The translations under genes were made by a program, and so were the position numbers. Positions 13,188-60,360 of a DNA stretch of 64,000 nucleotides are shown here, piece after piece. The notes beneath the pieces were generated by a model. The model was given only the letters and a program-made list of their open reading frames with translations, had not been told where the DNA came from and did no database searches. Numbering within the stretch: the stretch's first letter is position 1; the number at the start of each line of letters is the position of its first letter. This DNA is from Raphanus sativus (Eukaryota > Streptophyta > Magnoliopsida > Brassicales > Brassicaceae), in the NCBI RefSeq assembly GCF_000801105.2, contig NW_026615401.1:1-64000 (forward strand), written 5' to 3'.

Positions 13188-13980
13188 TAATACACTCCTA
13201 GGATGCTTCTCTGGATGATAAGGGGATAGATCCTTGCAAGTAGAGAATCAGAGACTCAATCTTCTTCAAGGCTTGTGGGTTGAATGGTGACACAAAGAGT
13301 TATGGAAGGGACTCCTTGATACTCCTAAGTAATCAGTCTCGGATATGACACACCAGGAAGGATTACTCTTGTGGTTTTGTTAGATATGACACACTAACAA
13401 AGACTCAAGAAATCTCAGAACTACAAGGAAGCTTGCAGTCGACAGAGAGAGAGACAAGAGTCTGAAAATAAAAGATTGGATAAAATGAAACTAGGGCATC
13501 CGAGTACATATTTATAGAGAAGGCAAGGAACAGGCTCCTTGTTCTCTAAATGTGACATAAAAATAAACCATAGTCTAAAATAAAACATAAGATAAAATAT
13601 GAAAGTCTGAAAATCCTAAGTACATCAAATGAGTGATAGGAAAGCAACATATGGCCTCGTTAAAAACCTATCTTTGGAAAACCCAGTGGGACAAAACCAA
13701 AGATAGGGAAAAAGAGCACACATATCTTACTTGCTCATTTGATGACTATCTAGAAAAAGAAATAGCTTGAATTGTGGTAAGTGTGTCTTGGTTGATCAAG
13801 CTTCTTCCAAGACTTTCTTCTTGCTTCATGGATGTCTTAAGTAGTCCTCCAATGGCTTCTTTGAGTTGCTTGCTTCTGGCTCGAGTCATGGGACCCTTAG
13901 GCATGGTGAGAGCATCTTCATCAGCTGGTTCCTCCATGGTCTCCTTGTCTTCTTTGCTTGACTGGTCCATGATCATATCA
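13188..13980 (-). repeat. G1 3' LTR
   Basis: A 793-bp direct repeat of 19159-19951. In element orientation it starts TGATATGAT at 13980, directly after the polypurine tract, and ends GTGTATTA at 13188 against satellite S1. It encodes the last roughly 77 residues of the G1 polyprotein. A perfect TATAAATA is visible at 13509-13516 (minus). Confidence 0.95.
13667..13707 (-). promoter_or_regulatory. Conserved 3' stem-loop (G1)
   Basis: An 11-bp perfect inverted repeat (13667-13677 and 13697-13707; CCTATCTTTGG with its complement) encloses a 19-nt loop. In transcript sense the loop reads TTTTGTCCCACTGGGTTTT. It starts about 40 nt after the polyprotein stop and lies within the LTR. The 5' LTR copy is at 19638-19678. 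The same loop on different stems occurs in every other element of the window. Function unknown. Confidence 0.85.
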
Positions 13981-16900
13981 TCCCCTCCCTCTTGAAAAGG
14001 ATTTGTCCTCAAATCTGGCTCATCTGCAACAAAAGAGATCAAGTCAGTAACATTGAAACTGTTGCTTATATCATACTTACCTTGAAGATCAAGCTTGTAG
14101 GCATTGTTATTGATTTTCTGGATGATCTCAAAAGGACCATCTATCCTCGGCATCAGCTTGGACTTTCTTTCTTTGGGAAACCTCTCCTTGCGCAAGTGAA
14201 CCCACACCATATCACCTACATCAAAGATCATCTCACGCCTGCCTTTGTTTGCTCTCTTAGTGTACTGCTTTGTCTTCTCAACAATATTCTTTCTAGCCTG
14301 CTCATGGATCTGCTGCACCATCTCTGCTTTCTTTTTCCCATCCATACTGACCCTTTCACACTCAGGTAAAGGCATTAGATCCAAAGGTGAGATGGGATTG
14401 AACCCATAAACAATTTCAAAAGGGGAAAACTTAGAAGCAGAATGCTGAGCATGATTATAAGCAAATTCACAGTGAGGCAAATATTCTTCCCATGATTTCA
14501 GATTCTTTTTAATGAATGCACGCAAGAGAGTTCCAAGAGTTCTATTAACTACCTCAGTCTGCCCATCAGTTTGTGGATGACATGTAGTAGAGAATAACAG
14601 CTTAGTACCTAGCTTAGACCAAAGAGTCTTCCAAAAATAACTAAGAAACTTAGTATCTCTATCAGAAACTATAGTCCTAGGCATGCCATGAATGCGCACA
14701 ATCTCTCTAAAGAACAGGTTAGCAACATGCAATGCATCATCAGTCTTATGGCAAGCAATGAAATGTGCCATTTTAGAAAACCTGTCCACAACTACAAAGA
14801 TAGAATCCTTACCTGTCTTGGTCCTTGGCAAACCCACAATAAAATCCATAGATATATCATTCCAGGGGTGAGTAGGAATAGGCAAAGGAGTGTACAAACC
14901 GTGGGGTTGGATCTTTGACTTAGCTGCTTTGCAAGTTGCACACCTTCCACAGATTCTCTCAACATCTCGTTTCATGTGTGGCCAAAAGAAGTGATCCTGC
15001 AAAACCTTAAGAGTCTTGGCAATACCAAAGTGTCCCATTAAACTTCCTCCATGGGATTCCCTGACAAATAAATCTCTTAAAGAACAGTTAGGCACACACA
15101 ATCTATTATCATAGAATAAGAATCCATCCTGCCTAAAGTAATGTCCTGCAGCATATTTCTCACACGATTGATAAGCTTCCTGAAAGTCAGAATCAGTTGC
15201 ATACATATCCTTAAGTTGTTCAAATCCTAGCAACTTAGCATCAAGAGTATTCAAGAGAGTATACCTTCTTGATAGTGCATCAGCAACTACATTTTCCTTA
15301 CCTTGTTTGTATTTGATCACATAAGGAAAGGTTTCAATGAATTCTACCCATCTGGCGTGTCTCTTGCTGAGCTTGCTTTGTCCCTTGAGGTACTTGAGAG
15401 ACTCATGGTCTGTGTGAATGACAAACTCCTTTGGCCATAGATAATGCTGCCAAGTCTGTAGAGCTCTCACCAAGGCATATAGTTCTTTGTCATAAGTGGC
15501 ATAGTTGAGAGTAGCTCCACTTAGTTTCTCACTGAAGTATGCTATGGGCCTTCTATCCTGCATCAACACAGCACCAATACCAATTCCTGAGGCATCACAT
15601 TCAATTTCAAATGTTTTAGAGAAATCAGGAAGTATAAGGAGAGGAGAGTTAGTAAGCTTCTCTTTGAGGATTTGAAATGAGGTTTCTTGTGCTTCTCCCC
15701 ACTTGAATCCTACATCTTTCTTGATAATCTCAGTCAGTGGAGCTGCTAGAGTGCTGAAGTCCTTCACAAATCGCCTATAGAAGCCTGCTAGCCCATGGAA
15801 ACTCCTTACTTCATTTATGGTTTTAGGAATCGGCCACTCTTGTATGGCTTTCACCTTCTCTTGATCCACCTTTACTCCATCTGCACTCACAACAAAGCCT
15901 AGGAAGACCAAGTTATCCGTACAGAAAGTACACTTCTTAAGATTAGCAAAGAGCTTTTCTTTTCTCAAAACATCAAGAACAGTCCTAACATGAACTATAT
16001 GCTCTTCTAAGCTCTTGGAGTAAACTAGGATATCATCAAAGTAAACTACCACAAACACTCCTATAAAAGATCTAAGCACATGATTCATCAATCTCATAAA
16101 GGTACTAGGAGCATTAGTTAAGCCAAAAGGCATCACCAACCACTCATACAAACCATGCTTAGTCTTGAAAGCAGTTTTCCACTCATCTCCCTCTTTCATC
16201 CTAATTTGATGATACCCACTCTTCAAATCTATCTTAGAAAAGATGCTAGAGCCATGCAATTCATCAAGCATATCATCTAATCTAGGAATAGGGTGGCGAT
16301 ACTTCACTGTTATGTTGTTGATGGCTCTGCAATCAACACACATGCGCCAGCTACCATCTTTCTTAGGCACAAGAAGTACTGGAACAGCACATGGACTCAT
16401 ACTCTCTCGGATATGACCCTTCTCCATCAGTTCCTCCACTTGTCTTTGCAACTCCTTAGTCTCAACAGGATTGGTTCTGTATGCTGGTCGGTTAGGAAGA
16501 GTGGAGCCAGGAACAAAATCAATCTGATGCTCAATCCCACGCACTGGTGGCAATCCTATGGGGTTATCTTCTGGAAACACATCAGTATACTCCTGCAAAA
16601 GAGAGACTAGTTCACTAGGATAATCCTGTGGAAGATCAGTGACTGTTAGCAAAGTCTCTTTAAACATAAGTAAAACAATAGAGGGTTGAGAGTATAGAAT
16701 TCTTTTGATATCTCCCTGTTTGGTATAGAGGCTGTGATGTTTCTGATCAGGCTTGAGGTCTATCTCTTTCTTTTTCTGAAGCTGGAGCTGATCCTCATGA
16801 ACTTCCTTAGGTGACAAAGGTACCAGCACTGTCTTCTTTCCATTAAACTCAAAAGAGTGCTTATTGGTGAAACCATCATGAACCACTCGCCTATCAAACT

Positions 16901-18452
16901 GCCATGGTCTACCAAGAAGAATATGGCTAGCTTCCATTGGTAATACATCACACAAGATCTCATCTTCATATCTACCAATGGCTATAGGTATCAGCACTTG
17001 ATTGGAGACTCTCATCTCACCTTCCTCATTGAGCCACTGCAACCGGTAAGGTCTAGGATGCTTCTGAACTTTCAGACCCAATTTCTTCACCATAGTCTCA
17101 CTAGCTACATTGACACAGCTTCCACCATCAATAATAAGGCTGCACACCTTTCCCTGAACCAAACACCTAGTGTAGAAGAGATTCTCACGCTGCTCAGTTT
17201 CTTCAGTCTTAGTTTGCAAGTTCAAGAGTCTTCTTGTCACCAACAACCTTCCTTTAACCGGTTCTACTTCACTCTCTTCACCAGACATTTTCAGATCAGA
17301 ACCGGAGTGCTCTTCTTCTGATTCATACTCTCCATTCTCAAGTAGAATCATAACCTTCTTGTTGGTGCACTCATTGGCATAATGTCCTCTTCCTTGACAC
17401 TTGAAACACTTAACATCTCTAGTTCTAGAGCTTGTAGCTTCAGCTTTGCCTTTGTCTTTGCTGAATGTGCTGTTTGGTTTAGTATCTTCTTTCTGCTGAG
17501 GCTTGCTATCCTTCAGATAAGATGGTTTCTCTTCTTTAGTGTACTGATACTTGCTGGACCCATAGTTGCCTCGCGAGTGATGCTTTCTCTTAATCTGTTG
17601 CTCCACCAGAATAGCTTTGTGCAACATCTCTTCTATCTCTATATAGTGCTGCATCTCCACACTGTCTTGTATCTCGCGGTTAAGCCCTCCAAGAAACCTT
17701 GCCATAGTAGCTTCTCTGTCCTCAGATATACCAGCCCTCAACATCAGCAACTCCATCTCCTGGTAGTACTCTTCCACAGTCTTGGATCCTTGTGTAAGTC
17801 TCCTCAATCTTTGATGAAGATCCCGGTGGTAGTGGTTAGGCACAAACCTCTTGCGCATAAGAGACTTCATCTCTTGCCAAGTATCAACCGGATACTCTTG
17901 ATTCATCCTCCTAGTAGTCACCAGTTGATCCCACCAGCTCAAAGCATAATCATAGAACTCAGTTGCAGCAAATTGAATCCTCTGAGCATTGGTGTAGTGT
18001 CGGCAGTTGAATACAATCTCAATCTTCTTCTCCCACTCAAGATAAGCATCAGGATCAACTTTGCCATGGAAGGGAGGGATCTTAAGCTTCAAACCAGCAA
18101 GTTCATCACGGTAAGGTCTTCTATCATCATGATCACGACGAGTTCTTCTTCTACTACCTCGTGATGCTGAGGAAGAACCACTTCTCTCACTTCTGTGGCG
18201 CTCATAGTAGTTATCAGTCTCCTGTGAACCAGCATGCTCTTGTGGAGTGTGAGTTCGACGGTTCCTTCTGGACTCATTACTGTGACCTTGACCAGTAGCT
18301 TGTCTGATTTCATTTCTGATCTCTTTCATGTTTTCATTCATCATCTCAGTCATGCTTTCCAACATGGTTTGCTTCAACTGAGCGGCCATTGCTTCCATCA
18401 ACAGTTTGTTCTTTCTCATCAGGTCTGCTTCCTCATCAGTCTCGTTGCCCAT
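13746..18452 (-). CDS. G1 Gag-Pol polyprotein (Ty3/Gypsy, CRM-like)
   Basis: Single intact ORF of 1568 codons from ATG 18452. The frame stays open upstream to 18479 without another ATG, and G2 starts at the matching MGNETDEEA. Domains in order: basic, RS-rich N-terminus; Gag core about 130-285; CCHC knuckle from about 349 ([14 protein letters not shown]); protease motif [12 protein letters not shown]; reverse transcriptase with YFDD near 804; RNase H; integrase with HHCC finger and DD35E triad near 1203, 1264 and 1300. The roughly 77-residue tail ([18 protein letters not shown]) lies inside the 3' LTR. No frameshift or stop, so this copy could be active. Family function: particle assembly, RNA copying and integration. 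Confidence 0.95.
13981..13993 (-). other. G1 polypurine tract
   Basis: Minus-strand AAGAGGGAGGGGA directly before the 3' LTR start. It lies inside the coding region because the ORF runs on into the LTR. It would prime plus-strand DNA synthesis. Confidence 0.88.
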
Positions 18453-19144
18453 TGTCACCAGACTTGAGAAGTTAGGCACTAGACTTGAGAAAATTTAGGC
18501 ACCAGACTTGAGAAAATTAGGCACCAGACTTGAGAAAATTAGGCACCAGACTTGAGAAAATTAGGCACCAGACTTGACTGTAGCTACAGTACTCGCCCAG
18601 CAAGGAAGAAGCTGCTTGTATCTTGATCTTTGTTCACCACTCTTCAAACACAAAAGTGTTTACCTGAAATAAATAACAAACTCAGCCAGTAAAGAGTTCG
18701 AAATCAACATCAAATAAGGAAACAAAACAAGAAATGAAACAAGCTGCAAGGATCTCAAGAGTCTTTTCAAAAATCACAAGATCAACACTGTCTATTTTAT
18801 CAGATTTCAACAAAACAAGATCAGATCTATCAATCTTACACAGGTTAATCAACAGATCGGATGATAAACTGACAGAAACAACAGATCTAACAAGAAAGTA
18901 ACAAGATTTGAACAGATCCAGAGTAGATCTATAAGAGAAACTCTTAGATCTATCAATTTCGAAACAACAAATCTCAGATCTATCAGTTTTGAAACACACA
19001 ACAACAGATCTAGCAATACTGAACTGAAAGTGAATCAAATCGACAGAAACAACACAACAAAACTCAGATCTATCAATGGTTATGAAAGCCAAGAACAGAT
19101 CGAGTGAAAGTTTGAAGAAAACGAGTACTTCCCTATCCAGATTT
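18453..19144 (-). other. G1 untranslated leader
   Basis: 692 bp between the primer-binding site and the Gag ATG. In transcript sense it is T-rich with many AGATCT and GATAGATCT copies, much like a plant intron. It has an acceptor-like TTATTTATTTCAG ending at 18664, matched by one at the same relative place in G2. The 136-codon frame inside it (18682-19092) is built from the repeated AGATCTATCA motif and I do not call it a gene. Confidence 0.6.
18456..18577 (-). repeat. 22-bp tandem repeat in the G1 leader
   Basis: About 5.5 units of a 22-bp repeat (core AGACTTGAGAAAATTAGGCA on the plus strand), slightly degenerate at the Gag-proximal end. It sits directly upstream of the ATG. G2 has no counterpart, so it arose in the G1 lineage, probably by slippage. 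Confidence 0.9.
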
Positions 19145-19156: not shown

Positions 19157-19158
19157 CA

Positions 19159-19951
19159 TAATACACTCCTAGGATGCTTCTCTGGATGATAAGGGGATAG
19201 ATCCTTGCAAGTAGAGAATCAGAGACTCAATCTTCTTCAAGGCTTGTGGGTTGAATGGTGACACAAAGAGTTATGGAAGGGACTCCTTGATACTCCTAAG
19301 TAATCAGTCTCGGATATGACACACCAGGAAGGATTACTCTTGTGGTTTTGTTAGATATGACACACTAACAAAGACTCAAGAAATCTCAGAACTACAAGGA
19401 AGCTTGCAGTCGACAGAGAGAGAGACAAGAGTCTGAAAATAAAAGATTGGATAAAATGAAACTAGGGCATCCGAGTACATATTTATAGAGAAGGCAAGGA
19501 ACAGGCTCCTTGTTCTCTAAATGTGACATAAAAATAAACCATAGTCTAAAATAAAACATAAGATAAAATATGAAAGTCTGAAAATCCTAAGTACATCAAA
19601 TGAGTGATAGGAAAGCAACATATGGCCTCGTTAAAAACCTATCTTTGGAAAACCCAGTGGGACAAAACCAAAGATAGGGAAAAAGAGCACACATATCTTA
19701 CTTGCTCATTTGATGACTATCTAGAAAAAGAAATAGCTTGAATTGTGGTAAGTGTGTCTTGGTTGATCAAGCTTCTTCCAAGACTTTGTTCTTGCTTCAT
19801 GGATGTCTTAAGTAGTCCTCCAATGGCTTCTTTGAGTTGCTTGCTTCTGGCTCGAGTCATGGGACCCTTAGGCATGGTGAGAGCATCTTCATCAGCTGGT
19901 TCCTCCATGGTCTCCTTGTCTTCTTTGCTTGACTTTTCCATGATCATATCA
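19159..19951 (-). repeat. G1 5' LTR
   Basis: 793 bp, nearly identical to 13188-13980. A 76-codon frame at 19717-19947 duplicates the polyprotein tail through LTR duplication and is not a separate gene. Its outer end meets Copia fragment F without a target duplication. Confidence 0.94.
19480..19487 (-). promoter_or_regulatory. G1 promoter TATA box
   Basis: Minus-strand TATAAATA in the 5' LTR. Transcription would start some 30 nt further down the minus strand, placing the U3/R border near 19450. Inferred from the motif only. Confidence 0.55.
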
Positions 19952-19969
19952 AGATCTTTACTCTTTTTC

Positions 19970-20010
19970 CCTCATCAAAGTTTTGTCCCAATGGGTTTTC
20001 TTTGGTGAGG
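19970..20010 (+). promoter_or_regulatory. Conserved 3' stem-loop (F)
   Basis: Stem CCTCATCAAAG (19970-19980) with CTTTGGTGAGG (20000-20010): 11 pairs, one G-T. The 19-nt loop reads TTTTGTCCCAATGGGTTTT. Followed by TTTTTAATGAGG, as in the other elements. Confidence 0.82.
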
Positions 20011-20040
20011 TTTTTAATGAGGGAGATCTTATGGTCCTTC

Positions 20041-20080: not shown

Positions 20081-20639
20081 TGTTGAAAGGAGTGAGAGAA
20101 GAGGTTAGGAATTATGAGAGAAGAGAAGAAGGAGAATGTAACTTGGGAAAAGTTACTGTGTGGTAAAAATAAAGTTACCACACAGTAAAATGTAAATGGG
20201 ATGTGCAGTAAGGTAACTTGGCGAGTGAAAGCAATGAAGGAGCCTTGGGTTGAGAAGGAAGGTTTGCTGAGTTCAAAGGAAGAGTTTGTGACCGTTGTAG
20301 CGCGCCCCTTTGCAGCTATTGACAGGCTGGAAAGTAATCAGCATCTAGTCAAGATACCTTTGGCATCAAGCATGTGATTAACCTCAGCCTAGTATTATCT
20401 TTGACTCCACATGCTTAGCATAGTGATCTAGGCTGCGCAAACCATTTGTAATCTCTCTTTATATATCCTGTATTGATCTCACATAATAATTAATCAAGAG
20501 TTTATCTCTCTACACAACTCTCTCTCTTGTTCATCATGATTCTCAAATAGTTCCTTATACAAATCTTTCTTATTCTGTTCTCTAATCTTGGATTCTCTTC
20601 TCTACTCTCTTAATACACTTACTAATCTCTAAAATATCA
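20081..20639 (+). repeat. F LTR (A-related family)
   Basis: 559 bp from TGTTGAAAGG to AAAATATCA. Related to, but clearly diverged from, the 566-bp A LTR; both end in a TCTCTAAAAT-type segment. It holds a 14-bp inverted repeat at 20153-20166 / 20175-20188 around the loop AAATAAAG; the A LTR has the same arrangement with different stem bases. Confidence 0.85.
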
Positions 20640-23600
20640 CTATGAGACTTATTCAACTTCCTGTTTATTCTCCACTGATTAGTGGTTCCAAATAAAGCTT
20701 CTTAGATCGTGGTTCATCCTGGTTTGATAAGAATCATGAAGATATTGCCATATGTCCGAACAGGCTAATCTGGAATCATCTGGATAGAAAGTGGGATATC
20801 TTCTTACTCACAACTCCTATGAGATTTATTCAACTTCCTGGTTATCCACTGATTAGTGGTTCCAAATAAAGCTTCTTAGATCGTGGTTCATCCTGGTTTG
20901 ATAAGAATCATGAAGATATTGCCATATGTCCGAACAGGCTAATCTGGAATCATCTGGATATAAAGTGGGATATCTTCTTACTCACAACTCCTATGAGATT
21001 TATTCAACTTCCTGGTTATTCTCCACTGATTAGTGGTTCCAAATAAAGCTTCTTAGATCGTGGTTCATCCTGGTTTGATAAGAATCATGAAGATATTGCA
21101 TATGTCCGAACAGGCTAATCTGGAATCATCTGGATAGAAAGTGGGATATCTTCTTACTCACAACTCCTATGAGATTTATTCAACTTCCTGGTTATTCTCC
21201 ACTGATTAGTGGTTCCAAATAAAGCTTCTTAGATCGTGGTTCATCCTGGTTTGATAAGAATCATGAAGATATTGCCATATGTCCGAACAGGCTAATCTGG
21301 AATCATCTGGATAGAAAGTGGGATATCTTCTTACTCACAACTCCTATGAGATTTATTCAACTTCCTGGTTATTCTCCACTGATTAGTGGTTCCAAATAAA
21401 GCTTCTTAGATCGTGGTTCATCCTGGTTTGATAAGAATCATGAAGATATTGCCATATGTCCGAACAGGCTAATCTGGAATCATCTGGATAGAAAGTGGGA
21501 TATCTTCTTACTCACAACTCCTATGAGATTTATTCAACTTCCTGGTTATTCTCCACTGATTAGTGGTTCCAAATAAAGCTTCTTAGATCGTGGTTCATCC
21601 TGGTTTGATAAGAATCATGAAGATATTGCCATATGTCCGAACAGGCTAATCTGGAATCATCTGGATAGAAAGTGGGATATCTTCTTACTCACAACTCCTA
21701 TGAGATTTATTCAACTTCCTGGTTATTCTCCACTGATTAGTGGTTCCAAATAAAGCTTCTTAGATCGTGGTTCATCCTGGTTTGATAAGAATCATGAAGA
21801 TATTGGCATATGTCCGAACAGGCTAATCTGGAATCATCTGGATAGAAAGTGGGATATCTTCTTACTCACAACTCCTATGAGATTTATTCAACTTCCTGGT
21901 TATTCTCCACTGATTAGTGGTTCCAAATAAAGCTTCTTAGATCGTGGTTCATCCTGGTTTGATAAGAATCATGAAGATATTGCCATATGTCCGAACAGGC
22001 TAATCTGGAATCATCTGGATAGAAAGTGGGATATCTTCTTACTCACAACTCCTATGAGATTTATTCAACTTCCTGGTTATTCTCCACTGATTAGTGGTTC
22101 CAAATAAAGCTTCTTAGATCGTGGTTCATCCTGGTTTGATAAGAATCATGAAGATATTGCCATATGTCCGAACAGGCTAATCTGGAATCATCTGGATAGA
22201 AAGTGGGATATCTTCTTACTCACAACTCCTATGAGATTTATTCAACTTCCTGGTTATTCTCCACTGATTAGTGGTTCCAAATAAAGCTTCTTAGATCGTG
22301 GTTCATCCTGGTTTGATAAGAATCATGAAGATATTGCCATATGTCCGAACAGGCTAATCTGGAATCATCTGGATAGAAAGTGGGATATCTTCTTACTCAC
22401 AACTCCTATGAGATTTATTCAACTTCCTGGTTATTCTCCACTGATTAGTGGTTCCAAATAAAGCTTCTTAGATCGTGGTTCATCCTGGTTTGATAAGAAT
22501 CATGAAGATATTGCCATATGTCCGAACAGGCTAATCTGGAATCATCTGGATAGAAAGTGGGATATCTTCTTACTCACAACTCCTATGAGATTTATTCAAC
22601 TTCCTGGTTATTCTCCACTGATTAGTGGTTCCAAATAAAGCTTCTTAGATCGTGGTTCATCCTGGTTTGATAAGAATCATGAAGATATTGCCATATGTCC
22701 GAACAGGCTAATCTGGAATCATCTGGATAGAAAGTGGGATATCTTCTTACTCACAACTCCTATGAGATTTATTCAACTTCCTGGTTATTCTCCACTGATT
22801 AGTGGTTCCAAATAAAGCTTCTTAGATCGTGGTTCATCCTGGTTTGATAAGAATCATGAAGATATTGCCATATGTCCGAACAGGCTAATCTGGAATCATC
22901 TGGATAGAAAGTGGGATATCTTCTTACTCACAACTCCTATGAGATTTATTCAACTTCCTGGTTATTCTCCACTGATTAGTGGTTCCAAATAAAGCTTCTT
23001 AGATCGTGGTTCATCCTGGTTTGATAAGAATCATGAAGATATTGGCATATGTCCGAACAGGCTAATCTGGAATCATCTGGATAGAAAGTGGGATATCTTC
23101 TTACTCACAACTCCTATGAGATTTATTCAACTTCCTGGTTATTCTCCACTGATTAGTGGTTCCAAATAAAGCTTCTTAGATCGTGGTTCATCCTGGTTTG
23201 ATAAGAATCATGAAGATATTGCCATATGTCCGAACAGGCTAATCTGGAATCATCTGGATAGAAAGTGGGATATCTTCTTACTCACAACTCCTATGAGATT
23301 TATTCAACTTCCTGGTTATTCTCCACTGATTAGTGGTTCCAAATAAAGCTTCTTAGATCGTGGTTCATCCTGGTTTGATAAGAATCATGAAGATATTGCC
23401 ATATGTCCGAACAGGCTAATCTGGAATCATCTGGATAGAAAGTGGGATATCTTCTTACTCACAACTCCTATGAGATTTATTCAACTTCCTGGTTATTCTC
23501 CACTGATTAGTGGTTCCAAATAAAGCTTCTTAGATCGTGGTTCATCCTGGTTTGATAAGAATCATGAAGATATTGCCATATGTCCGAACAGGCTAATCTG

Positions 23601-26600: not shown

Positions 26601-28488
26601 GGCTAATCTGGAATCATCTGGATAGAAAGTGGGATATCTTCTTACTCACAACTCCTATGAGATTTATTCAACTTCCTGGTTATTCTCCACTGATTAGTGG
26701 TTCCAAATAAAGCTTCTTAGATCGTGGTTCATCCTGGTTTGATAAGAATCATGAAGATATTGCCATATGTCCGAACAGGCTAATCTGGAATCATCTGGAT
26801 AGAAAGTGGGATATCTTCTTACTCACAACTCCTATGAGATTTATTCAACTTCCTGGTTATTCTCCACTGATTAGTGGTTCCAAATAAAGCTTCTTAGATC
26901 GTGGTTCATCCTGGTTTGATAAGAATCATGAAGATATTGCCATATGTCCGAACAGGCTAATCTGGAATCATCTGGATAGAAAGTGGGATATCTTCTTACT
27001 CACAACTCCTATGAGATTTATTCAACTTCCTGGTTATTCTCCACTGATTAGTGGTTCCAAATAAAGCTTCTTAGATCGTGGTTCATCCTGGTTTGATAAG
27101 AATCATGAAGATATTGCCATATGTCCGAACAGGCTAATCTGGAATCATCTGGATAGAAAGTGGGATATCTTCTTACTCACAACTCCTATGAGATTTATTC
27201 AACTTCCTGGTTATTCTCCACTGATTAGTGGTTCCAAATAAAGCTTCTTAGATCGTGGTTCATCCTGGTTTGATAAGAATCATGAAGATATTGCCATATG
27301 TCCGAACAGGCTAATCTGGAATCATCTGGATAGAAAGTGGGATATCTTCTTACTCACAACTCCTATGAGATTTATTCAACTTCCTGGTTATTCTCCACTG
27401 ATTAGTGGTTCCCAATAAAGCTTCTTAGATCGTGGTTCATCCTGGTTTGATAAGAATCATGAAGATATTGCCATATGTCCGAACAGGCTAATCTGGAATC
27501 ATCTGGATAGAAAGTGGGATATCTTCTTACTCACAACTCCTATGAGATTTATTCAACTTCCTGGTTATTCTCCACTGATTAGTGGTTCCAAATAAAGCTT
27601 CTTAGATCGTGGTTCATCCTGGTTTGATAAGAATCATGAAGATATTGCCATATGTCCGAACAGGCTAATCTGGAATCATCTGGATAGAAAGTGGGATATC
27701 TTCTTACTCACAACTCCTATGAGATTTATTCAACTTCCTGGTTATTCTCCACTGATTAGTGGTTCCAAATAAAGCTTCTTAGATCGTGGTTCATCCTGGT
27801 TTGATAAGAATCATGAAGATATTGCCATATGTCCGAACAGGCTAATCTGGAATCATCTGGATAGAAAGTGGGATATCTTCTTATCACAACTCCTATGAGA
27901 TTTATTCAACTTCCTGGTTATTCTCCACTGATTAGTGGTTCCAAATAAAGCTTCTTAGATCGTGGTTCATCCTGGTTTGATAAGAATCATGAAGATAATG
28001 GCATATGTCCGAACAGGCTAATCTGGAATCATCTGGATAGAAGGTGGGATATCTTCTTGCTCACAACACTTATGAGATTTATTCAACTTCCTGGTTATTC
28101 TCCACTGATTAGTGTTTCCAAATAAAGCTTCTTAGATCGTGGTTCATCCTGGTTTGATAAGAATCATGAAGATATGCCATATGTCCGAACAGGCTAATCT
28201 GGAATCATCTGGATAGAAAGTGGGATATCTTCTTACTCACAACTCCTATGAGATTTATTCAACTTCCTGGTTATTCTCCACTGATTAGTGGTTCCAATCA
28301 AGCTTCTTAGATATTGGTTCATCCTGGTTTGATAAGAATCATGTAGATATTGACCATATGTCCGAACAGGCTAATCTGGAATCATCTGGATAGAAAGTGG
28401 GATATCTTCTTACTCACAACTCCTATGAGACTTATTCAACTTCCTGGTTATTCTCCACTGATTAGTGGTTCCAAATAAAGCTTCTTAG
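20640..28488 (+). repeat. 177-bp satellite array S2 (about 44 monomers)
   Basis: Same satellite and orientation as S1. Interior units match the S1 consensus. Units at both edges are diverged: near 20660-20850 a C-to-T and a 3-bp loss; near 27880-28440 several changes including AATCAAGCTTCTTAGATATTGG. Three units (near 23926, 24986, 27996) carry linked changes (GATAAT, AAGGTGGG, ACAC(C)TTATG) and form a minor class. S2 is flanked by A-family LTRs in inverted orientation (F on the left, A on the right). Confidence 0.96.
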
Positions 28489-29054: not shown

Positions 29055-29094
29055 CTCCCCCTCAAGCTAGACCATGTGGAACAAGTCGAGCTTG
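29055..29094 (-). other. A polypurine tract and adjoining hairpin
   Basis: Minus-strand GAGGGGGAG (29055-29063) directly precedes the LTR. It is joined to an inverted repeat CAAGCTAGAC (29063-29072) / GTCGAGCTTG (29085-29094) with one mismatch. Same layout as in B, C, E and F. Confidence 0.8.
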
Positions 29095-29124
29095 GAAGGA
29101 CCATGAGATCTTCCTCATTAAAAA

Positions 29125-29165
29125 CCTCATCAAAGAAAACCCATTGGGACAAAACTTTGATGAGG
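29125..29165 (-). promoter_or_regulatory. Conserved 3' stem-loop (A)
   Basis: Perfect 11-bp stem CCTCATCAAAG (29125-29135) / CTTTGATGAGG (29155-29165) with a 19-nt loop, AAAACCCATTGGGACAAAA on the plus strand. It begins about 30 nt after the polyprotein stop. Confidence 0.85.
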
Positions 29166-29196
29166 GAAAAAGAGTAAAGACCTCATGATCAGGGGA

Positions 29197-32823: not shown

Positions 32824-34690
32824 CTCCCCCTCAAGCTTGACCATAGGAGATCCTTGGGCAAGCTTGGAACTATGAAGAAGCTCCCTCATTAAAACCTTTA
32901 TGTGCAAAACCCAATGGGACAAAAACACATAAAGGAAAAAGAGTAGAGTTCAACATAGCCTAGGGATTGGCCAATGAGCTCTTGTGCCTTAGAATCAGTG
33001 TGGTTGGACACAAGAAGCTCTGGATCATGGCCTGACTTGTGCTGCAAGGATGAACTCCATAACTTGCACACATCAACATCTCGGAACTCTTCTTTAGGCC
33101 AGTTGTGTCTCCCCCTCTCTTCTGACTACTCGACATCTTGAAAGGACTTAGGGACCACCAGCTTCTACTTCAGAGAGCTCCACTAAGGTACCTGATACAT
33201 TATCCCAAAGGTGCATCAGTTCTCAAGGCAAAGCATCCAATCACAACAAGCTCAATAACATTTTAAGTGTAAGAACAATCATAAATGTATTGAGATGAGT
33301 TTAAGGTGCTTCCCTTTCATCAGTATGGTGGGGAGTGAACTCCACTTGAATCCCCACTTGGTAAAGTAACACTCAGATCATGGAAGCTCAATCTCATGCT
33401 TGCACATTCTTCTTTGATCGGATTTATGATGCAAGCGTGAACTCCACAGCTTGCCAATGGCTTGTGGCGGTTAGATCTTCAGGATTGCTCTCTTCATTAC
33501 CCCTCCTCAAGCTTGATCCAGAGAGTATAGGGATGGACCAAGCTTGAAAGTGAGCAAGACTTAGCTAGAACCAGGAGCGCATCACCCCAACAGCTGCGCT
33601 TAAGTCAACCAGTTCCTCCTCCTCTTATCTCCTATCCACTGCCTAAAACAACTCTTCCTTGTGTGTCACTTGGAACCAGGAGCTCAACACCCAAACAGGC
33701 TGCGCTTAATTCAACCGGTTCTACACACAAGTTGTCTCTCCATGGTCAGGAATATACACCAAGTGTAGGCTCTGAACACATGGGCCGATTTCTCCATGAG
33801 CAGGAATATGCATCTTGTGCAGGCTCTGATCATCATGGGTATCTCTTTTCTTGTAGTTGCTTCTGGTCTGGTAGCCACAACTCTGTGTCCTACACAACAT
33901 TACAACTCAGATAGAGATCAGTAACAAAAGTATGAGAGAAAAAAGAGAATGAGAATAGATGAGAATTAAGTAACCAGAGAATAAGAGAGAATAGAGAATA
34001 AGGGAGAATAGAGAATTTGCTCAAGAGTTCTAATGGACAGAGTTTTGCTCTGTTTTCTTGAGTTTTGCGGAAGCATAAACAGCCAGGAGCATCCAATACC
34101 CATTCAGAGTTTGGTGCTTTAGTAGCTGAAACACAATGGACCATTGAACAATTAATTTGCTCACTGATGTTAGACAAGTGCCACTGGAATAACTCATGAA
34201 CTGATGTTTTCCATGGCTTGCAACAAGAGAACCATCAGAATAACACAAACACAAGTGTTTTCTATGGCTCACACAACAAAGACACCAATGGATCAAAACA
34301 GTTTGTCCACTGGTCAAATATTTTTAAAACATTTTTCAGAATCAGATTACTCAAGAATCTGTTCAAAAACATTTTTCAGAAAGTTTTTTTTTTTTTAAGT
34401 GATTTCAAGATGCAAGAATAATCTTTTTCTCCCTCCCTCAGGCTGGTAAGAACATATTTCAGTCTTTCATCCAAACCTTAAACAATGAGGAGATCAAGGG
34501 GAGATTCATTGATTTAAAACAAAACATTTAAAGATTGCATCCTGAATTTTGAAAAACATACTTTGTCTAAACTCTCTACTGCTCATGTTTTGAATCCTAG
34601 CCACACAGCTCATCAAAATGATTTCAAAGTGAGAGAGAGAGTTTCAGATCAAAGTAGAACAGAGTGAGTTCAGCCCAAGAGAGCAACAAA
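32824..34690 (-). other. E internal non-coding region
   Basis: No Gag or Pol similarity in any frame I read. It holds the PPT with hairpin CAAGCTTGAC / GGCAAGCTTG (32832-32841, 32857-32866); the conserved stem-loop; two imperfect internal duplications (a GAACCAGGAGC...CTGCGCTTAA unit near 33570 and 33670, and a CAGGAATAT...GGCTCTGA unit near 33748 and 33800); and TTCCGCAA (minus) at 34065-34072. No captured host gene is recognisable. Confidence 0.7.
32895..32935 (-). promoter_or_regulatory. Conserved 3' stem-loop (E)
   Basis: Perfect 10-bp stem CCTTTATGTG (32895-32904) / CACATAAAGG (32926-32935) around the shared loop (CCCAATGGGAC core). Retained although E codes for no protein, which argues for a cis-acting role. 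Confidence 0.83.
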
Positions 34691-45609: not shown

Positions 45610-45649
45610 CTCCCCCTCAAGCTTGACCATGTGGAACAAGTCAAGCTTG
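45610..45649 (-). other. B polypurine tract and adjoining hairpin
   Basis: Minus-strand GAGGGGGAG (45610-45618), then the perfect 10-bp inverted repeat CAAGCTTGAC (45618-45627) / GTCAAGCTTG (45640-45649). Confidence 0.82.
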
Positions 45650-45678
45650 GAAGACCATGAAGCATTCCCTCATTAAAA

Positions 45679-45719
45679 CCTTGATATGCAAAACCCAGTG
45701 GGACAAAAACATATCAAGG
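45679..45719 (-). promoter_or_regulatory. Conserved 3' stem-loop (B)
   Basis: Perfect 10-bp stem CCTTGATATG (45679-45688) / CATATCAAGG (45710-45719) around the shared loop (core CCCAGTGGGAC on the plus strand). Begins 30 nt beyond the polyprotein stop. Confidence 0.85.
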
Positions 45720-45748
45720 AAAGAGTAGAACACTTCATGGAAAGGGGA

Positions 45749-49750: not shown

Positions 49751-49966
49751 GAGCAGCTGGGTAACATCAATCACAGCTAGTATCCAGTGGAAAAAACTTC
49801 AAAGGTATAACCAGAGTGAGAAAAAGAAGAATTAGATGAACTTTGCTATTTTTGGCAAAATCTGGAAATGAGAATGAAGAACACACCAAGAACAGTATGA
49901 ACTTTGCCAAAAATAGAAATAAAACTCAGAGAATTTGCGGAATTAAATCAGGTTTCAAGAGCTTGT

Positions 49967-50498: not shown

Positions 50499-50546
50499 GA
50501 TGTCTCCTCTCTCTTTATCTTATCCTTTCATGTCTTCATGTCAATA
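50499..50546 (-). repeat. C 3' LTR, remaining 48 bp
   Basis: U3 start of the C 3' LTR after the B target duplication. In element sense it begins TATTGACATGAAGAC, sharing 15 bp with the C 5' LTR. The first bases TATTG replace the usual TGTTG in both LTRs. Confidence 0.8.
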
Positions 50547-50585
50547 CTCCCCCTCAAGCTTTACCATACAGCATGGTTAAGCTTG
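50547..50585 (-). other. C polypurine tract and adjoining hairpin
   Basis: Minus-strand GAGGGGGAG (50547-50555), with inverted repeat CAAGCTTTACC (50555-50565) / GGTTAAGCTTG (50575-50585), one mismatch. Confidence 0.78.
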
Positions 50586-50613
50586 GAACCCATGAAGACA
50601 TCCCTCATTAAAA

Positions 50614-50657
50614 CCTTTTGTGTGAAAAACCCAATGGGACAAAAAACACACAAGAGG
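50614..50657 (-). promoter_or_regulatory. Conserved 3' stem-loop (C)
   Basis: 11-bp stem CCTTTTGTGTG (50614-50624) / CACACAAGAGG (50647-50657) with one non-canonical pair, around the shared loop (core CCCAATGGGAC). About 30 nt past the polyprotein stop. Confidence 0.8.
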
Positions 50658-50689
50658 AAAAAGAGTAGATGCTTCATGGCTTAAGAGGA

Positions 50690-53934: not shown

Positions 53935-54710
53935 TGATATGATTCCAGATCATGTCAAGAAGAACAAGGACCAACCAGCTGAAGAAGAAGATGCCTAAGA
54001 CCTTTCTAAAGGTCCCGTGACTCGTGCAAGATCAAAGAAGCTCAAGGAAGCTATTGGAGGCTTAATCAGAAAGTCTTTGAAGAAAGAAAGTCTTGAAGGA
54101 AGCTTGATACTTCAAGACCCACTCATCACCATTCAAGTCATCATACCATCAAGCTGAGTATCATCTAGGCTAGCAAGAGAAGTGTGCTCTTTTCCTGTCT
54201 TAGTTTTTGTCCCATTGGGTTTTGCTAAGATAGGTTTTTAACGAGGCCTTGTCTTGCTATTTCAAATCACCTAGTATGATACTCTCGGACCAGACTACAT
54301 TATGTATCTTATTCTATCTTAGACTATGCTTTTTATTTCGTTTACACAAGTCAAAGGGAGCCTGTTCCTTTATGACTATTAGTTGTTTCCGAGACCTTGT
54401 GCATGTACAAGGCTCTCACTATATATTCTGGTCGAGCAAGTCTAATAAGATCATCATCTTTAACCTAAAAACCTTTCTCTTCTCTTATTGCTATCAACAA
54501 GAGTTCGAGAGTTCTGGTGTGTCATATCCAGAGTCTAAGGACTTCTCCTTTAGTGTGTCATATCTAAAGTAGTCGTCTAGGAGTATCAAAGAGTCATCCG
54601 CATCTCTTTGTGTCACCAATCGCATCCACAAGCCTTGGAAGATTGAGTTTTGATTCATCTTTGCAAGGATCTATCCAATATCATCCAGAGTTCATCCTAG
54701 GGTCGTGTTA
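53935..54710 (+). repeat. G2 5' LTR
   Basis: 776 bp, TGATATGATT to GTCGTGTTA. Carries a copy of the stem-loop at 54194-54234 and a TATATATT motif at 54420-54427. The LTR-encoded polyprotein tail has acquired a stop here (GCCTAAGAC against GCCTTAGAC in the 3' LTR), which does not affect the functional copy. Confidence 0.96.
54420..54427 (+). promoter_or_regulatory. G2 promoter TATA-like motif
   Basis: TATATATT in the 5' LTR, about 290 bp from the LTR end, at a place comparable to the G1 TATAAATA. Motif only. Confidence 0.45.
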
Positions 54711-54712
54711 AG

Positions 54713-54724: not shown

Positions 54725-55070
54725 AGCTCTGGATAGGGAAGTTTCGATCTTTTGCTGTTTTCAAATAAGAACCCTTCAACTTCTTTTGAATACATCGATC
54801 GATCTGTGTTCTTTGTTGTGTTATTTCAATAGATCTGTTCGTTTCAATATCTATTGTTGTTGTTTGAATCAAATCCTGATAGATCTAAGAAGTTTCATCA
54901 TATTTGATCTTAATCTGTTTCGATTTCGTGTGATAAAAGTTATCAAGTTTTGATCTTTTCAAATTGTGTTGCCTTAGATCGCAAGTTTTTCCTTTTAATC
55001 AAAGTTGTTTCCTTTTTAAATTTTCTTGAACATCTTACTTGTTTAGATTGTTTCTTTGTTTCAGGTACCA
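54725..55070 (+). other. G2 untranslated leader
   Basis: 346 bp, strongly T-rich, ending TTTGTTTCAG / GTACCAATG just before the Gag start. GGATAGGGAAGT near its beginning is shared with G1 and could supply a splice donor. Splicing is inference. Confidence 0.5.
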
Positions 55071-58000
55071 ATGGGGAATGAGACAGATGAGGAAGCAGAA
55101 CTTGTAAGAAAGAGTAAGCTACTAAGGGAGGAGATGACAGAACAGTTGAAGCAAACTCTGATCACTACTGTGGCTGATATGATCAAGACTAGCATCACGG
55201 GTCTTCGTGATGAGATAAGACAAGAGCTACGACAAGCTACTGGTCAGGGCCATAGTAATGAATCTAGAAGAGACAGAAGAGGTCAGAGTCCACATAATCA
55301 TCCTGAACCAAGGAGAGATCGTAGAGAGCATGCTGAATCTCATGAAACAGACAACTACTATGAGCGTCACCGGTCTGAACTCAGTGGATCTTCTTCATCA
55401 AGAGGTAGTAGGAGAAGGCAGAGACGTGATCATGATGAAAGAAGGACTCAGAGAGATGAGTTCAATGGATTGAAGATCAAAATTCCTCCTTTTCATGGCA
55501 AGGTTGATCCGGATGCTTACTTGGAGTGGGAGAAGAAGATTGAACTAGTCTTCAATTGCAAACACTACACCAACGCTCAAAGAATCCAAATTGCAGCTAC
55601 TGAGTTCCATGACTATGCCTTGAGTTGGTGGGATCAATTGGTAACTAGTAGAAGACTCAACCAAGAGTATCCAGTTGAATCTTGGCAAGAGATGAAGTCT
55701 CTTATGCGCAAGAGGTTTGTGCCTAACCATTACCACAGAGATCTACATCAGAAACTAAGAAGACTCACGCAAGGTTCCAAGACTGTTGAGGAGTATTATC
55801 AAGAGCTAGAGTTGCTGATGTTGAGAGCTAGTATTTCAGAGGACAGAGAAGCTACTATGGCAAGATTCCTTGGAGGGCTAAACCGTGAGATACAAGACAA
55901 TGTTGAGATGCAACACTATGTGGAGATAGAAGAGATGTTGCATAAAGCTATCTTGGTGGAACAGCAGCTTAAGAGAAAGAGTCACTCACGTGGTAGCTTT
56001 GGTTCCACACGATTCCAACATTCAAAAGAAGATAAGTCTAGCTTCCAAAAAGAGAGTAAGCCTCAGCCTAAAGAAGAACCGAAACCTGCTAGCATCTACA
56101 ACAAAGATAAAAGCAAGGTTGAAACAACTAGTTCAAGAGCCAGAGATGTCAAGTGCTTCAAGTGTCAAGGTCGTGGTCACTATGCCAATGAATGTACCAA
56201 CAAAAGGGTAATGATACTGCTTGATAATGGCGAGTTTGAATCTGAAGCTGAGAAAGAAGATCATACTAAGGATCAGTCTGAAGAAGAGTATGAAGAAGAG
56301 CCGGTCAATGGAAGGTTACTAGTGGCAAGGAGAAACCTTAGTCTTCAAACTAAGACCGAAGAGCTTGAGCAAAGAGAGAACCTATTCTACACACGGTGCT
56401 TGGTACAAGGAAAGGTCTGCAGCCTCATAGTTGATGGTGGTAGTTGTGTCAACGTTGCGAGTGAAACCATGGTTCAAAAGCTTGGATTAAAGGTTCAGAA
56501 ACATCCAAAACCCTATAGACTCCAGTGGCTCAATGATGAGGGCGAGATGAAGGTCTCTGATCAGGTTCTAGTTCCCTTATCCATTGGAAAATATGAGGAT
56601 GAGATCTTGTGTGACATTTTGCCTATGGAAGCAAGTCACATACTGCTGGGAAGGCCTTGGCAATCTGACAGACGTGTAGTTCATGATGGCTTTACCAACA
56701 AGCACTCCTTTGAGTTTAAAGGCAGAAAGACAGTACTAGTGCCACTATCTCCAAAAGAAGTACATCAAGATCAGCTGCAGCTTCAAAAGAAAAAGGAGAT
56801 TGATCTTAAACCGACTCAAACCAAGCAACACAACTTCTATGCCAAAACTGGTGATATCAAGAGATCTCTTCACTCTAATCAATCTATTCTCTTATTCATC
56901 TACAAAGAATCTCTCTTGAATCTAACTGATTTTGCACCGGTGTACCCGAGTGAGATGATGTCTCTTTTACAGGAATATGATGATGTGTTTCCAGATGATA
57001 GTCCTACAGGGTTGCCACCAATACGTGGGATTGAGCATCAGATTGACTTTGTACCTGGATCCACACTTCCTAACCGACCTGCTTATAGAACCAATCCAAT
57101 AGAAACCAAAGAGCTACAAAGACAAGTAGATGAGTTGATGGAGAAGGGTCACATCCGAGAGAGCATGAGTCCTTGTGCTGTTCCTGTCTTACTAGTACCC
57201 AAGAAGGATGGGAGCTGGCGCATGTGTGTTGATTGTAGAGCAATCAACAATATCACGGTGAAGTATCGACACCCTATCCCTAGACTTGATGATATGCTTG
57301 ATGAATTGCATGGTTCTAGCATCTTTTCTAAAATTGATTTAAAGAGTGGCTATCATCAGATTAGGATGCAAGAAGGTGATGAATGGAAAACTGCATTTAA
57401 AACTAAACATGGATTGTATGAGTGGTTAGTTATGCCATTCGGATTGACAAATGCACCTAGTACATTCATGAGGTTGATGAATCATGTGCTTAGATCATTC
57501 ATAGGTTCATTTGTTGTAGTTTACTTTGATGACATCCTTGTCTACAGCAAGAGTTTAGAAGAACATATAGTTCATCTTAGGTCTGTTCTTGATGTTTTGA
57601 GAAAGGAAAAGCTTTATGCTAACCTTAAGAAATGCACCTTTTGTACGGATAACTTGGTCTTTTTAGGCTTTGTTGTGAGTGCAGATGGAGTTAAGGTTGA
57701 TCAAGAAAAGATAAGAGCCATACAAGAGTGGCCCATTCCTAAGACAATCAGTGAGGTCCGGAGCTTTCATGGTCTTGCTGGCTTCTACAGAAGATTTGTA
57801 AGGGATTTCAGCACTCTTGCAGCCCCACTAACCGAAATCATCAAGAAGGACGTAGGCTTTAAATGGGAAGAAGCACAAGAAGCCGCCTTTCAATGCCTAA
57901 AAGAGAAGCTTACTAATGCTCCCCTTCTTATACTTCCAGATTTTAATAAAACTTTTGAGATAGAATGTGATGCTTCCGGTATAGGTATTGGTGCTGTCTT

Positions 58001-59807
58001 GATGCAGGATAAGAGACCTATAGCTTACTTCAGTGAGAAGCTCGGAGGAGCTACACTCAACTATGCAACATATGACAAGGAGTTGTATGCACTTGTGAGG
58101 GCTCTACAAACTTGGCAACACTACCTTTGGCCTAAGGAGTTTGTGATACACACGGATCATGAGTCTCTTAAGTACTTAAAGGGTCAAAACAAACTCAGCA
58201 AGAGACACGCCAGATGGGTTGAGTTCATAGAAACATTTCCTTATGTCATCAGGTACAAACAAGGTAAAGAAAACATAGTTGCTGATGCTCTCTCCCGAAG
58301 GTATGTTCTCTTAAACACTCTAGATGCTAAACTCTTAGGATTTGAGCAATTCAAAGAGATGTATGAAACTGATCTTGACTTTAAAGAAGCTTATCTATCT
58401 TGTGAAAAGATTGCTAAAGGTCACTACTTTAGGCATGAAGGATATTTGTTTTATGATAATCGCCTATGTGTACCTAACTGTTCTATGAGAGAGTTGTTTA
58501 CTAGGGAAGCTCACGGAGGAAGCTTAATGGGACACTTTGGTATTGCCAAGACTCTTAAGGTTTTGCAGGATCATTTCTTTTGGCCTCACATGAAGAAAGA
58601 TGTAGAGAAGATATGCCAGAGATGTGCAACTTGCAAACAAGCTAAGTCCAAAGTTCAGTCTCATGGTTTGTATACTCCTCTCCCTATTCCTTATCACCCA
58701 TGGAATGACATTTCTATGGATTTTATTGTTGGATTGCCTAGGACTAGAACCGGAAAGGATTCAATCTTTGTAGTTGTCGATAGGTTCTCCAAAATGGCTC
58801 ACTTTATTGCTTGTCACAAAACTGATGATGCATTGCATGTTTCTAATTTGTTCTTTAAAGAGATAGTTCGTTTGCATGGCATGCCTAAGACCATTGTTTC
58901 AGATAGAGATACTAAATTCCTTAGTTACTTTTGGAAAACTTTGTGGTCTAAGCTAGGAACTAAGTTGTTGTTTTCTACTACATGTCATCCGCAAACTGAT
59001 GGTCAAACTGAGGTAGTGAATAGAACATTAGGAACTCTCTTGCGTGCATTCATCAAAAAGAATTTGAAGTCTTGGGAAGAACATTTGCCTCATTGTGAAT
59101 TTGCATACAATCATGCTGTGCATTCTGCTTCTAAGTTTTCACCCTTTGAAATTGTTTATGGGTTCAATCCCACTTCTCCTTTGGATCTAATGCCTTTACC
59201 TGAGTGTGCTAGAGTTAGCTTTGATGGAAAAAGAAAGGCCGAGATGGTGCAGGAGATCCATAAGCAAGCACGCCACAACATTGAAGAGAAAACAAAGTTG
59301 TATGCTAAGCATGCAAACAAAGGCAGACGTGAGATGATCTTTGAAGAAGGAGATCTTGTTTGGGTTCACCTTAGAAAAGAAAGATTTCCAAACGAGAGGA
59401 AGTCCAAGATAATGCCAAGGATTGATGGACCATTTGAGATCGTGAAGAAGCTTAGCAACAATGCCTACAAGCTTGATCTAAAGGGAAGGTATGATGTGAG
59501 TAATAGTTTTAATGTTGCTGATTTGGTTCCTTTTATTGCAGATGATCCAGATTTGAGGACAAATCCTTTTCAAGAGGGAGGGAATGATATGATTCCAGAT
59601 CATGTCAAGAAGAACAAGGACCAACCAGCTGAAGAAGAAGATGCCTTAGACCTTTCTAAAGGTCCCGTGACTCGTGCAAGATCAAAGAAGCTCAAGGAAG
59701 CTATTGGAGGCTTAATCAGAAAGTCTTTGAAGAAAGAAAGTCTTGAAGGAAGCTTGATACTTCAAGACCCACTCATCACCATTCAAGTCATCATACCATC
59801 AAGCTGA
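55071..59807 (+). CDS. G2 Gag-Pol polyprotein (Ty3/Gypsy, CRM-like)
   Basis: Intact ORF of 1578 codons from ATG 55071; the upstream in-frame codons have no ATG. Gag core about 140-295; CCHC knuckle C362, C365, H370, C375; protease [11 protein letters not shown] with Asp at 455; RT about 690-875 with YFDD 818-821; RNase H D967, E1004, D1029; integrase H1148, H1155, C1185, C1188, with D1217, D1278, E1314 (DD35E). No canonical chromodomain is obvious. The C-terminus ([10 protein letters not shown], then [18 protein letters not shown]) crosses the polypurine tract, and the last 73 residues lie in the 3' LTR, as described for CR motifs of CRM elements. Aligns end to end with G1. Probably competent. 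Confidence 0.96.
59572..59584 (+). other. G2 polypurine tract
   Basis: AAGAGGGAGGGAA immediately before the 3' LTR start (TGATATG) and inside the reading frame (QEGGND). Confidence 0.9.
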
Positions 59808-60360
59808 GTATCATCTAGGCTAGCAAGAGAAGTGTGCTCTTTTCCTGTCTTAGTTTTTGTCCCATTGGGTTTTGCTAAGATAGGTTTTTAACGAGGCCTT
59901 GTCTTGCTATTTCAAATCACCTAGTATGATACTCTCGGACCAGACTACATTATGTATCTTATTCTATCTTAGACTATGCTTTTTATTTCGTTTACACAAG
60001 TCAAAGGGAGCCTGTTCCTTTATGACTATTAGTTGTTTCCGAGACCTTGTGCATGTACAAGGCTCTCACTATATATTCTGGTCGAGCAAGTCTAATAAGA
60101 TCATCATCTTTAATCTAAAAACCTTTCTCTTCTCTTATTGCTATCAACAAGAGTTCGAGAGTTCTGGTGTGTCATATCCAGAGTCTAAGGACTTCTCCTT
60201 TAGTGTGTCATATCTAAAGTAGTCGTCTAGGAGTATCAAAGAGACATCCGCATCTCTTTGTGTCACCAATCGCATCCACAAGCCTTGGAAGATTGAGTTT
60301 TGATTCATCTTTGCAAGGATCTATCCAATATCATCCAGAGTTCATCCTAGGGTCGTGTTA
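59585..60360 (+). repeat. G2 3' LTR
   Basis: 776 bp. The first 223 bp are coding (polyprotein tail and stop). Followed by the target duplication GAGAA. Confidence 0.96.
59844..59884 (+). promoter_or_regulatory. Conserved 3' stem-loop (G2)
   Basis: 10-bp stem CCTGTCTTAG (59844-59853) / CTAAGATAGG (59875-59884) with one G-T pair. Loop core GTCCCATTGGG. It is followed by TTTTTAACGAGGC, as in G1, and starts 37 nt after the stop. Confidence 0.85.

What the first reader, a model, noticed from the sequence alone, without database searches (positions are those of the whole stretch)
13667..59884. One stem-loop with an invariant loop and compensated stems in seven different retroelements
Gypsy G1 and G2, Copia A, B, C and F, and non-coding E each carry, just past the stop codon (or in the corresponding 3' region), a 10-11-bp inverted repeat around a 19-21-nt loop whose core is GTCCCAxTGGG in transcript sense. 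Stems differ between families yet stay paired: CCTATCTTTGG (G1), CCTCATCAAAG (A, F), CCTTTATGTG (E), CCTTGATATG (B), CCTTTTGTGTG (C), CCTGTCTTAG (G2). TTTTAAYGAGG follows in all. Changed stems around a fixed loop mean selection on RNA (or single-strand DNA) structure, across two superfamilies and in an element with no protein. It lies in the LTR in Gypsy but before the polypurine tract in Copia; the shared reference point is the stop codon. Candidate roles: dimerisation through the self-complementary CCCAxTGGG, packaging, translation termination or RNA stability. I recall similar sequences in other plant LTR elements and make no claim of novelty for the loop.
Basis: partly seen in the sequence, partly recalled or inferred. 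Interest (0 to 1): 0.87.

Follow-up and report, generated by a model that had tools for sequence, protein, structure and literature searches.

The report
Poly(A)-clamping RNA hairpin in radish retrotransposons
Many jumping genes of a radish-like plant, of two quite different kinds, end with the same RNA hairpin that looks built to grip the RNA's own poly(A) tail, most likely to stop the plant from trimming that tail and destroying the RNA.

Summary
The stem-loop is real and larger than described. In transcript sense: basal stem ending CUC/GAG; U-tracts UUU(UU)/UUUU(U)AAY; an 11-bp variable stem opening CC/GG; U-tracts UUUUGU/UUUU; CCC-AxU-GGG cap. Four U-tracts bracketed by G-C pairs in a 3' UTR is the layout of a double ENE ("element for nuclear expression"), which clamps the poly(A) tail in U-A-U triples. 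Such an ENE was shown in 2025 to protect Arabidopsis Copia93/Evade RNA from deadenylation (PMC12501189).

A structure-first scan finds exactly nine copies in the window and none in 40 random sequences. In six families each inner-stem arm pairs best with its own partner (1 of 720 assignments); eight of 11 pairs vary yet stay paired, save one C-A. The basal stem behaves alike. The host assembly (433 Mb, probably Raphanus sativus) holds 2656 exact cores against 0 reversed; 84 of 90 sampled places fit a strict four-tract pattern, six miss by one base. They lie in 12 flank clusters, some downstream of Gypsy and two distant Copia pol genes. Poly(A) binding is inferred. Known kind; the spread, sharing across superfamilies and covariation are the addition.

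The parts
13656..13716 (-). dENE module of G1 (Gypsy), 3' LTR copy, CUC to GAG; reported stem 13667-13707
   Evidence: 29 nt after the stop of ORF 13746-18479
19627..19687 (-). dENE module of G1, 5' LTR copy (upstream of the TATA-like box, probably not transcribed)
19961..20021 (+). dENE module of F, a Copia fragment of the A family
29114..29174 (-). dENE module of A (Copia), between stop codon and polypurine tract
   Evidence: 22 nt after the stop of ORF 29197-30075
32885..32943 (-). dENE module of E, LTR element without an ORF of 150 aa or more inside it, nested in A
45669..45725 (-). dENE module of B (Copia); its first U-tract has only three U
   Evidence: 23 nt after the stop of ORF 45749-49774
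50604..50665 (-). dENE module of C (Copia); one C-A mismatch in the inner stem
54187..54245 (+). dENE module of G2 (Gypsy), 5' LTR copy (upstream of the TATA-like box, probably not transcribed)
59837..59895 (+). dENE module of G2, 3' LTR copy; reported stem 59844-59884
   Evidence: 29 nt after the stop of ORF 55056-59807

Best explanation
The module is a double ENE (dENE) in the 3' UTR of the retrotransposon RNA. Two stacked U-rich internal loops, each flanked by G-C pairs, take up stretches of the RNA's own poly(A) tail as U-A-U base triples. This hides the tail from deadenylases and 3'-5' decay, so the genomic RNA, which is both mRNA and template for reverse transcription, lasts longer and the element transposes more. 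Shown here: the four-tract architecture, pairing with compensation in both variable stems, fixed U-tracts and flanking G-C pairs, and a place between stop codon and predicted poly(A) region. Inferred from published work on Evade and the rice TWIFB1 dENE: poly(A) binding, triplex, protection from deadenylation and effect on mobility.
For: Folds of 7 window copies and 2 copies on L025 show the same two U-loops. Inner stem: own arms 65 of 66 pairs, next best assignment 62, 1 of 720; pairs 1-3 never vary, pairs 4-11 vary and stay paired but for one C-A. By duplex energy with L025, own arms are best of 40320 for inner and basal stem. Structure-first scan: 9 copies, 0 in 40 nulls. Genome: 2656 cores, 0 reversed; 84 of 90 sampled places fit the strict four-tract pattern, 42 distinct arm pairs, own -8.9 against -5.3 kcal/mol, 0 of 2000 shuffles reach own; TTTT before the core in 90 of 90 though not asked for; 55 of 56 places with a CCTT-type arm pair 4 of 4 in the variable four bases. 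Invariant positions are the U-tracts and the G-C pairs beside them, which Li et al. found necessary for the Evade triplex (PMC12501189, parts 1-2 of 5 and Discussion read). T-tracts are on the transcript strand in all 9 window copies. Module 22-29 nt after the stop in A, B, G1, G2; 138-173 nt before the TATA-like box in the Gypsy LTRs.
Against: No poly(A) binding, triplex, transcript or 3' end was measured. L025's first copy folds only weakly better than shuffles (z -1.7, 7 of 200 shuffles as good). B has only three U in one tract. The AAY after the outer 3' tract can pair with two U of the 5' tract, and the shared cap letters CCCAxUGGG go beyond what the ENE model explains. No Rfam family matches at gathering threshold. 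The shuffles do not correct for relatedness.
Confidence: 0.85

Rival explanations
2. DNA-level function: cruciform or single-strand hairpin for recombination, integration or plus-strand priming near the polypurine tract.
For: Perfect palindromic arms; 48-52 nt from the polypurine tract in Copia and E.
Against: In Gypsy it is inside the LTR, not before the polypurine tract. T-tracts lie on the transcript strand only, and the scan of the complemented window finds nothing. G-U pairs outnumber A-C pairs 24 to 10 in 23 distinct arm pairs, weak because some of these pairs are out of register and 16 cells are other mismatches.
Confidence: 0.04
3. Translation-termination or readthrough element just after the pol stop.
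For: Module begins 22-29 nt after the stop in A, B, G1 and G2.
Against: E has no ORF of 150 aa or more and keeps the module; 63 of 90 sampled places have no detectable pol upstream, though some may be fragments or 5' LTR copies.
Confidence: 0.03
4. Small-RNA precursor: the long stem feeds Dicer-like enzymes.
For: Long near-perfect stems; sub-threshold matches to miRNA families.
Against: Loops and flanking pairs are conserved while the would-be mature strand varies; the miRNA matches are far below gathering scores, e.g. 15.9 against 100 bits.
Confidence: 0.02

Closest known systems
ENE of Arabidopsis Copia93/Evade (Li et al. 2025, PMC12501189; outline, parts 1-2 of 5 and Discussion read)
   Same: Four U-tracts in a fold-back in the 3' UTR between ORF and 3' LTR of a Brassicaceae Copia element; G-C pairs beside the tracts needed for the triplex.
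   Different: Sequence not compared (not printed in the text). Here the module is in Gypsy LTRs, two Copia lineages and a non-coding element, and is abundant; the paper calls ENEs seemingly rare in Arabidopsis.
Double-domain ENE of the rice hAT transposon TWIFB1 (passages of PMC10855403; original structure paper not held)
   Same: Two U-rich domains in one stem-loop of a plant transposon RNA that bind poly(A).
   Different: DNA transposon; spacing and letters not compared.
About 200 ENEs in plant and fungal transposable elements (Tycowski et al. 2016; not held; known from Li et al. and PMC12846552 passages)
   Same: ENEs strongly associated with plant LTR retrotransposons, according to Li et al.
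   Different: Could not check whether these families or CRM-like elements are on that list.
Inverted repeat around the polypurine tract of Sireviruses (PMC2829016 passages)
   Same: Conserved inverted repeat near the 3' LTR of plant Copia elements.
   Different: It encloses the polypurine tract; ours lies upstream of it, carries U-tracts, and in Gypsy is inside the LTR.

Membership tests
ENE / double ENE | U-tracts on both strands of an internal loop; two such loops in a double ENE | tested here: met
   9 of 9 window copies by scan; 84 of 90 genomic places by strict pattern, the other six off by one base outside the T-runs; B has one tract of only three U
ENE / double ENE | G-C pairs immediately beside the U-tracts | tested here: met
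   CUC/GAG, CC/GG and CCC/GGG invariant in 7 of 7 distinct window copies; the pair at the top of the inner stem is G-C in four and U-G in three
ENE / double ENE | Stems conserved by pairing, not by sequence | tested here: met
   no correction for relatedness
ENE / double ENE | Location in the 3' UTR close to the poly(A) tail | tested here: inconclusive
   Between stop codon and TATA-like box or polypurine tract; no 3' end mapped; no TATA-like match found for A
ENE / double ENE | Triple helix with poly(A) | not testable with these tools
   needs melting, probing or a structure
ENE / double ENE | Raises RNA stability or accumulation | not testable with these tools
   shown for Evade in PMC12501189, not here
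CRM clade group A (for G1, G2) | Polyprotein ORF runs into the 3' LTR | tested here: met
   stops at 13746 and 59807 lie inside the 3' LTRs; criterion from PMC3059260 passages
CRM clade group A (for G1, G2) | LTR ends TGATG / CATCA | tested here: not met
   LTRs as found by BLAST begin TGATAT and end GTATTA or GTGTTA; so I call them CRM-like, not CRM
CRM clade group A (for G1, G2) | CR motif at the integrase C-terminus; place in the reverse-transcriptase tree | not tested
   only Pfam was run; it reports no chromodomain for G1 or G2

The most novel reading that the evidence does not exclude
One double-ENE module of common descent has passed between Copia and centromeric Gypsy elements (for example by template switching) and has become a standard, exchangeable part of the young LTR elements of this genome, so that tail protection is a general device of plant retrotransposons rather than a speciality of Evade. 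In the CRM-like elements it would also lengthen the life of centromere-derived RNA.
Probability: 0.3. Interest if true: 0.68.

Novelty: new member of a known kind. Interest (0 to 1): 0.5.

Why it matters
It turns an unnamed repeat motif of plant LTR elements into a testable RNA device with a known mechanism. It suggests that poly(A) clamping is common in a Brassicaceae genome, whereas Li et al. 2025 call ENEs seemingly rare in Arabidopsis. It offers dozens of natural stem variants (42 distinct arm pairs in 84 of 90 sampled places) for testing the triplex, and it bears on why element families whose LTR pairs in this window are 99-100% identical have been active so recently. If the Gypsy copies work, they may affect the life of centromeric RNA.

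Tried and rejected
Looked for the module outside the host: 24 viral-contig stretches with TTNGTCCCANTGGGTTTT, none with stems or outer tracts by eye (0 of 24); gapped pattern in viral contigs, 0; Copia and Gypsy pol queries in viral contigs, no relatives confirmed. The single genome-contig scan gave one stretch, L025, a plant-like Copia in a Solirubrobacter assembly, taken as contamination.

Rfam: 0 matches at gathering threshold in the window; seven sub-threshold matches around B (bacterial sRNAs, miRNAs, a snoRNA) taken as chance. Passages of the enod40 and Sirevirus papers and of an LTR survey were checked as possible sources of the motif and set aside. Full-text searches for loop and tail strings gave 1 and 4 papers; by title and abstract none of the 5 is about this motif. 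This covers only the held open-access library.

MAFFT alignments A2 and A3 do not register the stems, so no covariance model and no column-based covariation count was made; arm permutations were used instead, and they do not model phylogeny. A search for a second relaxed cap near the 90 genomic copies found none by a strict pattern (0 of 90), so L025's tandem pair was not seen again. A genome-wide count of the architecture without the fixed cap could not be had: the machine stayed busy.

Full report
What is there. The window is centromere-like: 177-bp satellite arrays (about 1-13222, 20605-28510, 38295-44607) interrupted by young LTR elements. LTR pairs are 99.0-100% identical: G1 13188-13980/19159-19951, A 28489-29054/37762-38328, E 31849-32823/34703-35677 (nested in A), B 45091-45613/49976-50497, G2 53932-54710/59582-60360. 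G1 and G2 encode Gypsy polyproteins, B a Copia polyprotein. The host is probably Raphanus sativus: a radish protein 98% identical to G1 pol (43% of it covered) lies on a contig of 52,202,202 bp, the length of contig C4 of the window's assembly.

The observation. All seven reported stem-loops are present, plus the two 5' LTR copies of G1 and G2. The gapped pattern is not found in 100 shuffles. A scan that asks only for pairing and T-tracts finds the same nine and nothing else, and nothing in 40 order-1 Markov sequences; its thresholds were set with the copies in view.

The larger structure. Folding about 95-100 nt around each of the seven copies gives in every case a basal stem, a U-rich internal loop, an inner stem, a second U-rich internal loop and a CCC-AxU-GGG cap (z-scores -4.4 to -6.7). 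The two L025 copies fold alike, with z -1.7 (7 of 200 shuffles as good) and -4.5. The outer loop is CUC-UUU(UU)(C) against UUUU(U)AAY-GAG; in some folds two U pair with the AA.

Selection on pairing. In the inner stem, pairs 1-3 (CCU/AGG) never vary; the other eight vary in pair type and stay paired in all seven copies but for one C-A in C. Among six families (F dropped as a near copy of A) own arms score 65 of 66 pairs; no other of the 720 assignments reaches that (best 62). With L025's two copies, by duplex energy, own is best of 40320 for the inner stem (-105.6, next -99.3) and for the basal stem (-144.0, next only -142.5). In the basal stem some single foreign pairings score slightly better than own (G1 with the G2 and L25b arms; C with the B arm). 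These tests are not corrected for relatedness.

The genome. The core GTCCCANTGGGTTTT occurs 2656 times in 433 Mb and its reverse 0 times. I examined 90 of these, all on C1-C4: 84 fit the strict four-tract pattern; the other six each depart by one base in CTC, AAY or GAG. The loop core is fixed by the search, but the TTTT in front of it was not asked for and is present in 90 of 90. The 84 give 42 distinct arm pairs; own duplex energy averages -8.9 against -5.3 kcal/mol for shuffled partners, and no shuffle of 2000 comes below -6.4. In 56 places with a CCTT-type arm, the variable four bases pair 4 of 4 in 55. With the module masked, the flanks of the 90 fall into 12 clusters, five of them single; within clusters the stems differ and mostly still pair.

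Who carries it. Of the 90, 27 have a pol match upstream: 14 to the G1 Gypsy, 5 to Copia B, 8 to the L025 Copia, whose pol is only 28% identical to that of B. Three of the L025 matches are short or weak (L030, L065, L093), and five of the Gypsy matches cover only the last 60-75 residues, which are encoded inside the LTR, so those may be 5' LTR copies or solo LTRs. The other 63 have no match within 1.5 kb; they may be non-coding families, fragments, 5' LTR copies or lineages that my three queries miss.

Place in the transcript. The module begins 22-29 nt after the stop of the nearest ORF in A, B, G1 and G2. In Gypsy it is 138-173 nt upstream of a TATA-like box, so in U3: the 5' copy should not be transcribed and the 3' copy ends up in the 3' UTR. 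In A, B, C and E it is 48-52 nt before the polypurine tract, and in B and E 413 and 553 nt before a TATA-like box. Both layouts put it once, between stop codon and poly(A) tail. The TATA boxes are sequence matches; no start or end of a transcript was mapped.

What it is. Four U-tracts flanked by G-C pairs in a 3' UTR fold-back is how Li et al. 2025 (PMC12501189) describe the ENE of Evade. It melts as a triplex with A20, needs its U-tracts and neighbouring G-C pairs, stabilises the RNA and promotes transposition, and the deadenylase CCR4a acts against it. Our invariant positions are largely those, and the variable positions the rest. A review names Evade and the rice hAT element as such cases (PMC12846552, passages), and the rice TWIFB1 element is called a double-domain ENE in PMC10855403 (passages). 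I therefore read the module as a double ENE, at 0.85. Poly(A) binding is not shown here.

What stays open. Why the cap letters, the AAY and the G of UUUUGU are shared between Gypsy and Copia: common descent by exchange, convergence, or a further role. L025 lacks the G, and its second cap reads CCCACAGGG, so these are not essential everywhere. Whether Tycowski et al. 2016 already list these families could not be checked. That I saw no printed description of this module rests on the searches in one open-access library, seen as listings with only some papers opened; in the CRM survey PMC3059260 the words hairpin and secondary structure do not occur.

Noticed in passing
45605-45657, 29050-29100, 32819-32870, 50535-50590 (- strand): A second hairpin (AAGCTTGAC..GTCAAGCTT in B) directly upstream of the polypurine tract GAGGGGGAG in Copia B, A, C and in E; folds with z -3.0 in B and A, -1.7 in E, -1.5 in C.
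   Followed up: partly
L025 (NZ_QPKJ02000023.1), - strand, about 834-655: A 5.6-kb Solirubrobacter contig looks like a plant Copia element (contamination) and carries two modules in tandem after the pol stop, with different stems.
   Followed up: partly
P0078, P0080 (proteins listed): Two Brassica gene models end in peptides (FCPNGFS..) that read like a translation of the hairpin, so gene prediction seems to splice Copia pol into it.
   Followed up: no
31849-35677: E, an LTR element without an ORF of 150 aa or more inside it, is nested in A; its 975-bp LTRs are 100% identical, so it moved very recently and must use proteins made elsewhere (the last point is inference).
   Followed up: no
1-28510 and 38329-44623: 177-bp satellite arrays change orientation within the window: inverted arms of 6295 bp, 100% complementary.
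   Followed up: no
L029, L040, L044 and similar genomic loci: In the L025-like Copia families the inner stem keeps unpaired bases on the 5' side at fixed places while the four bases between them covary.
   Followed up: partly
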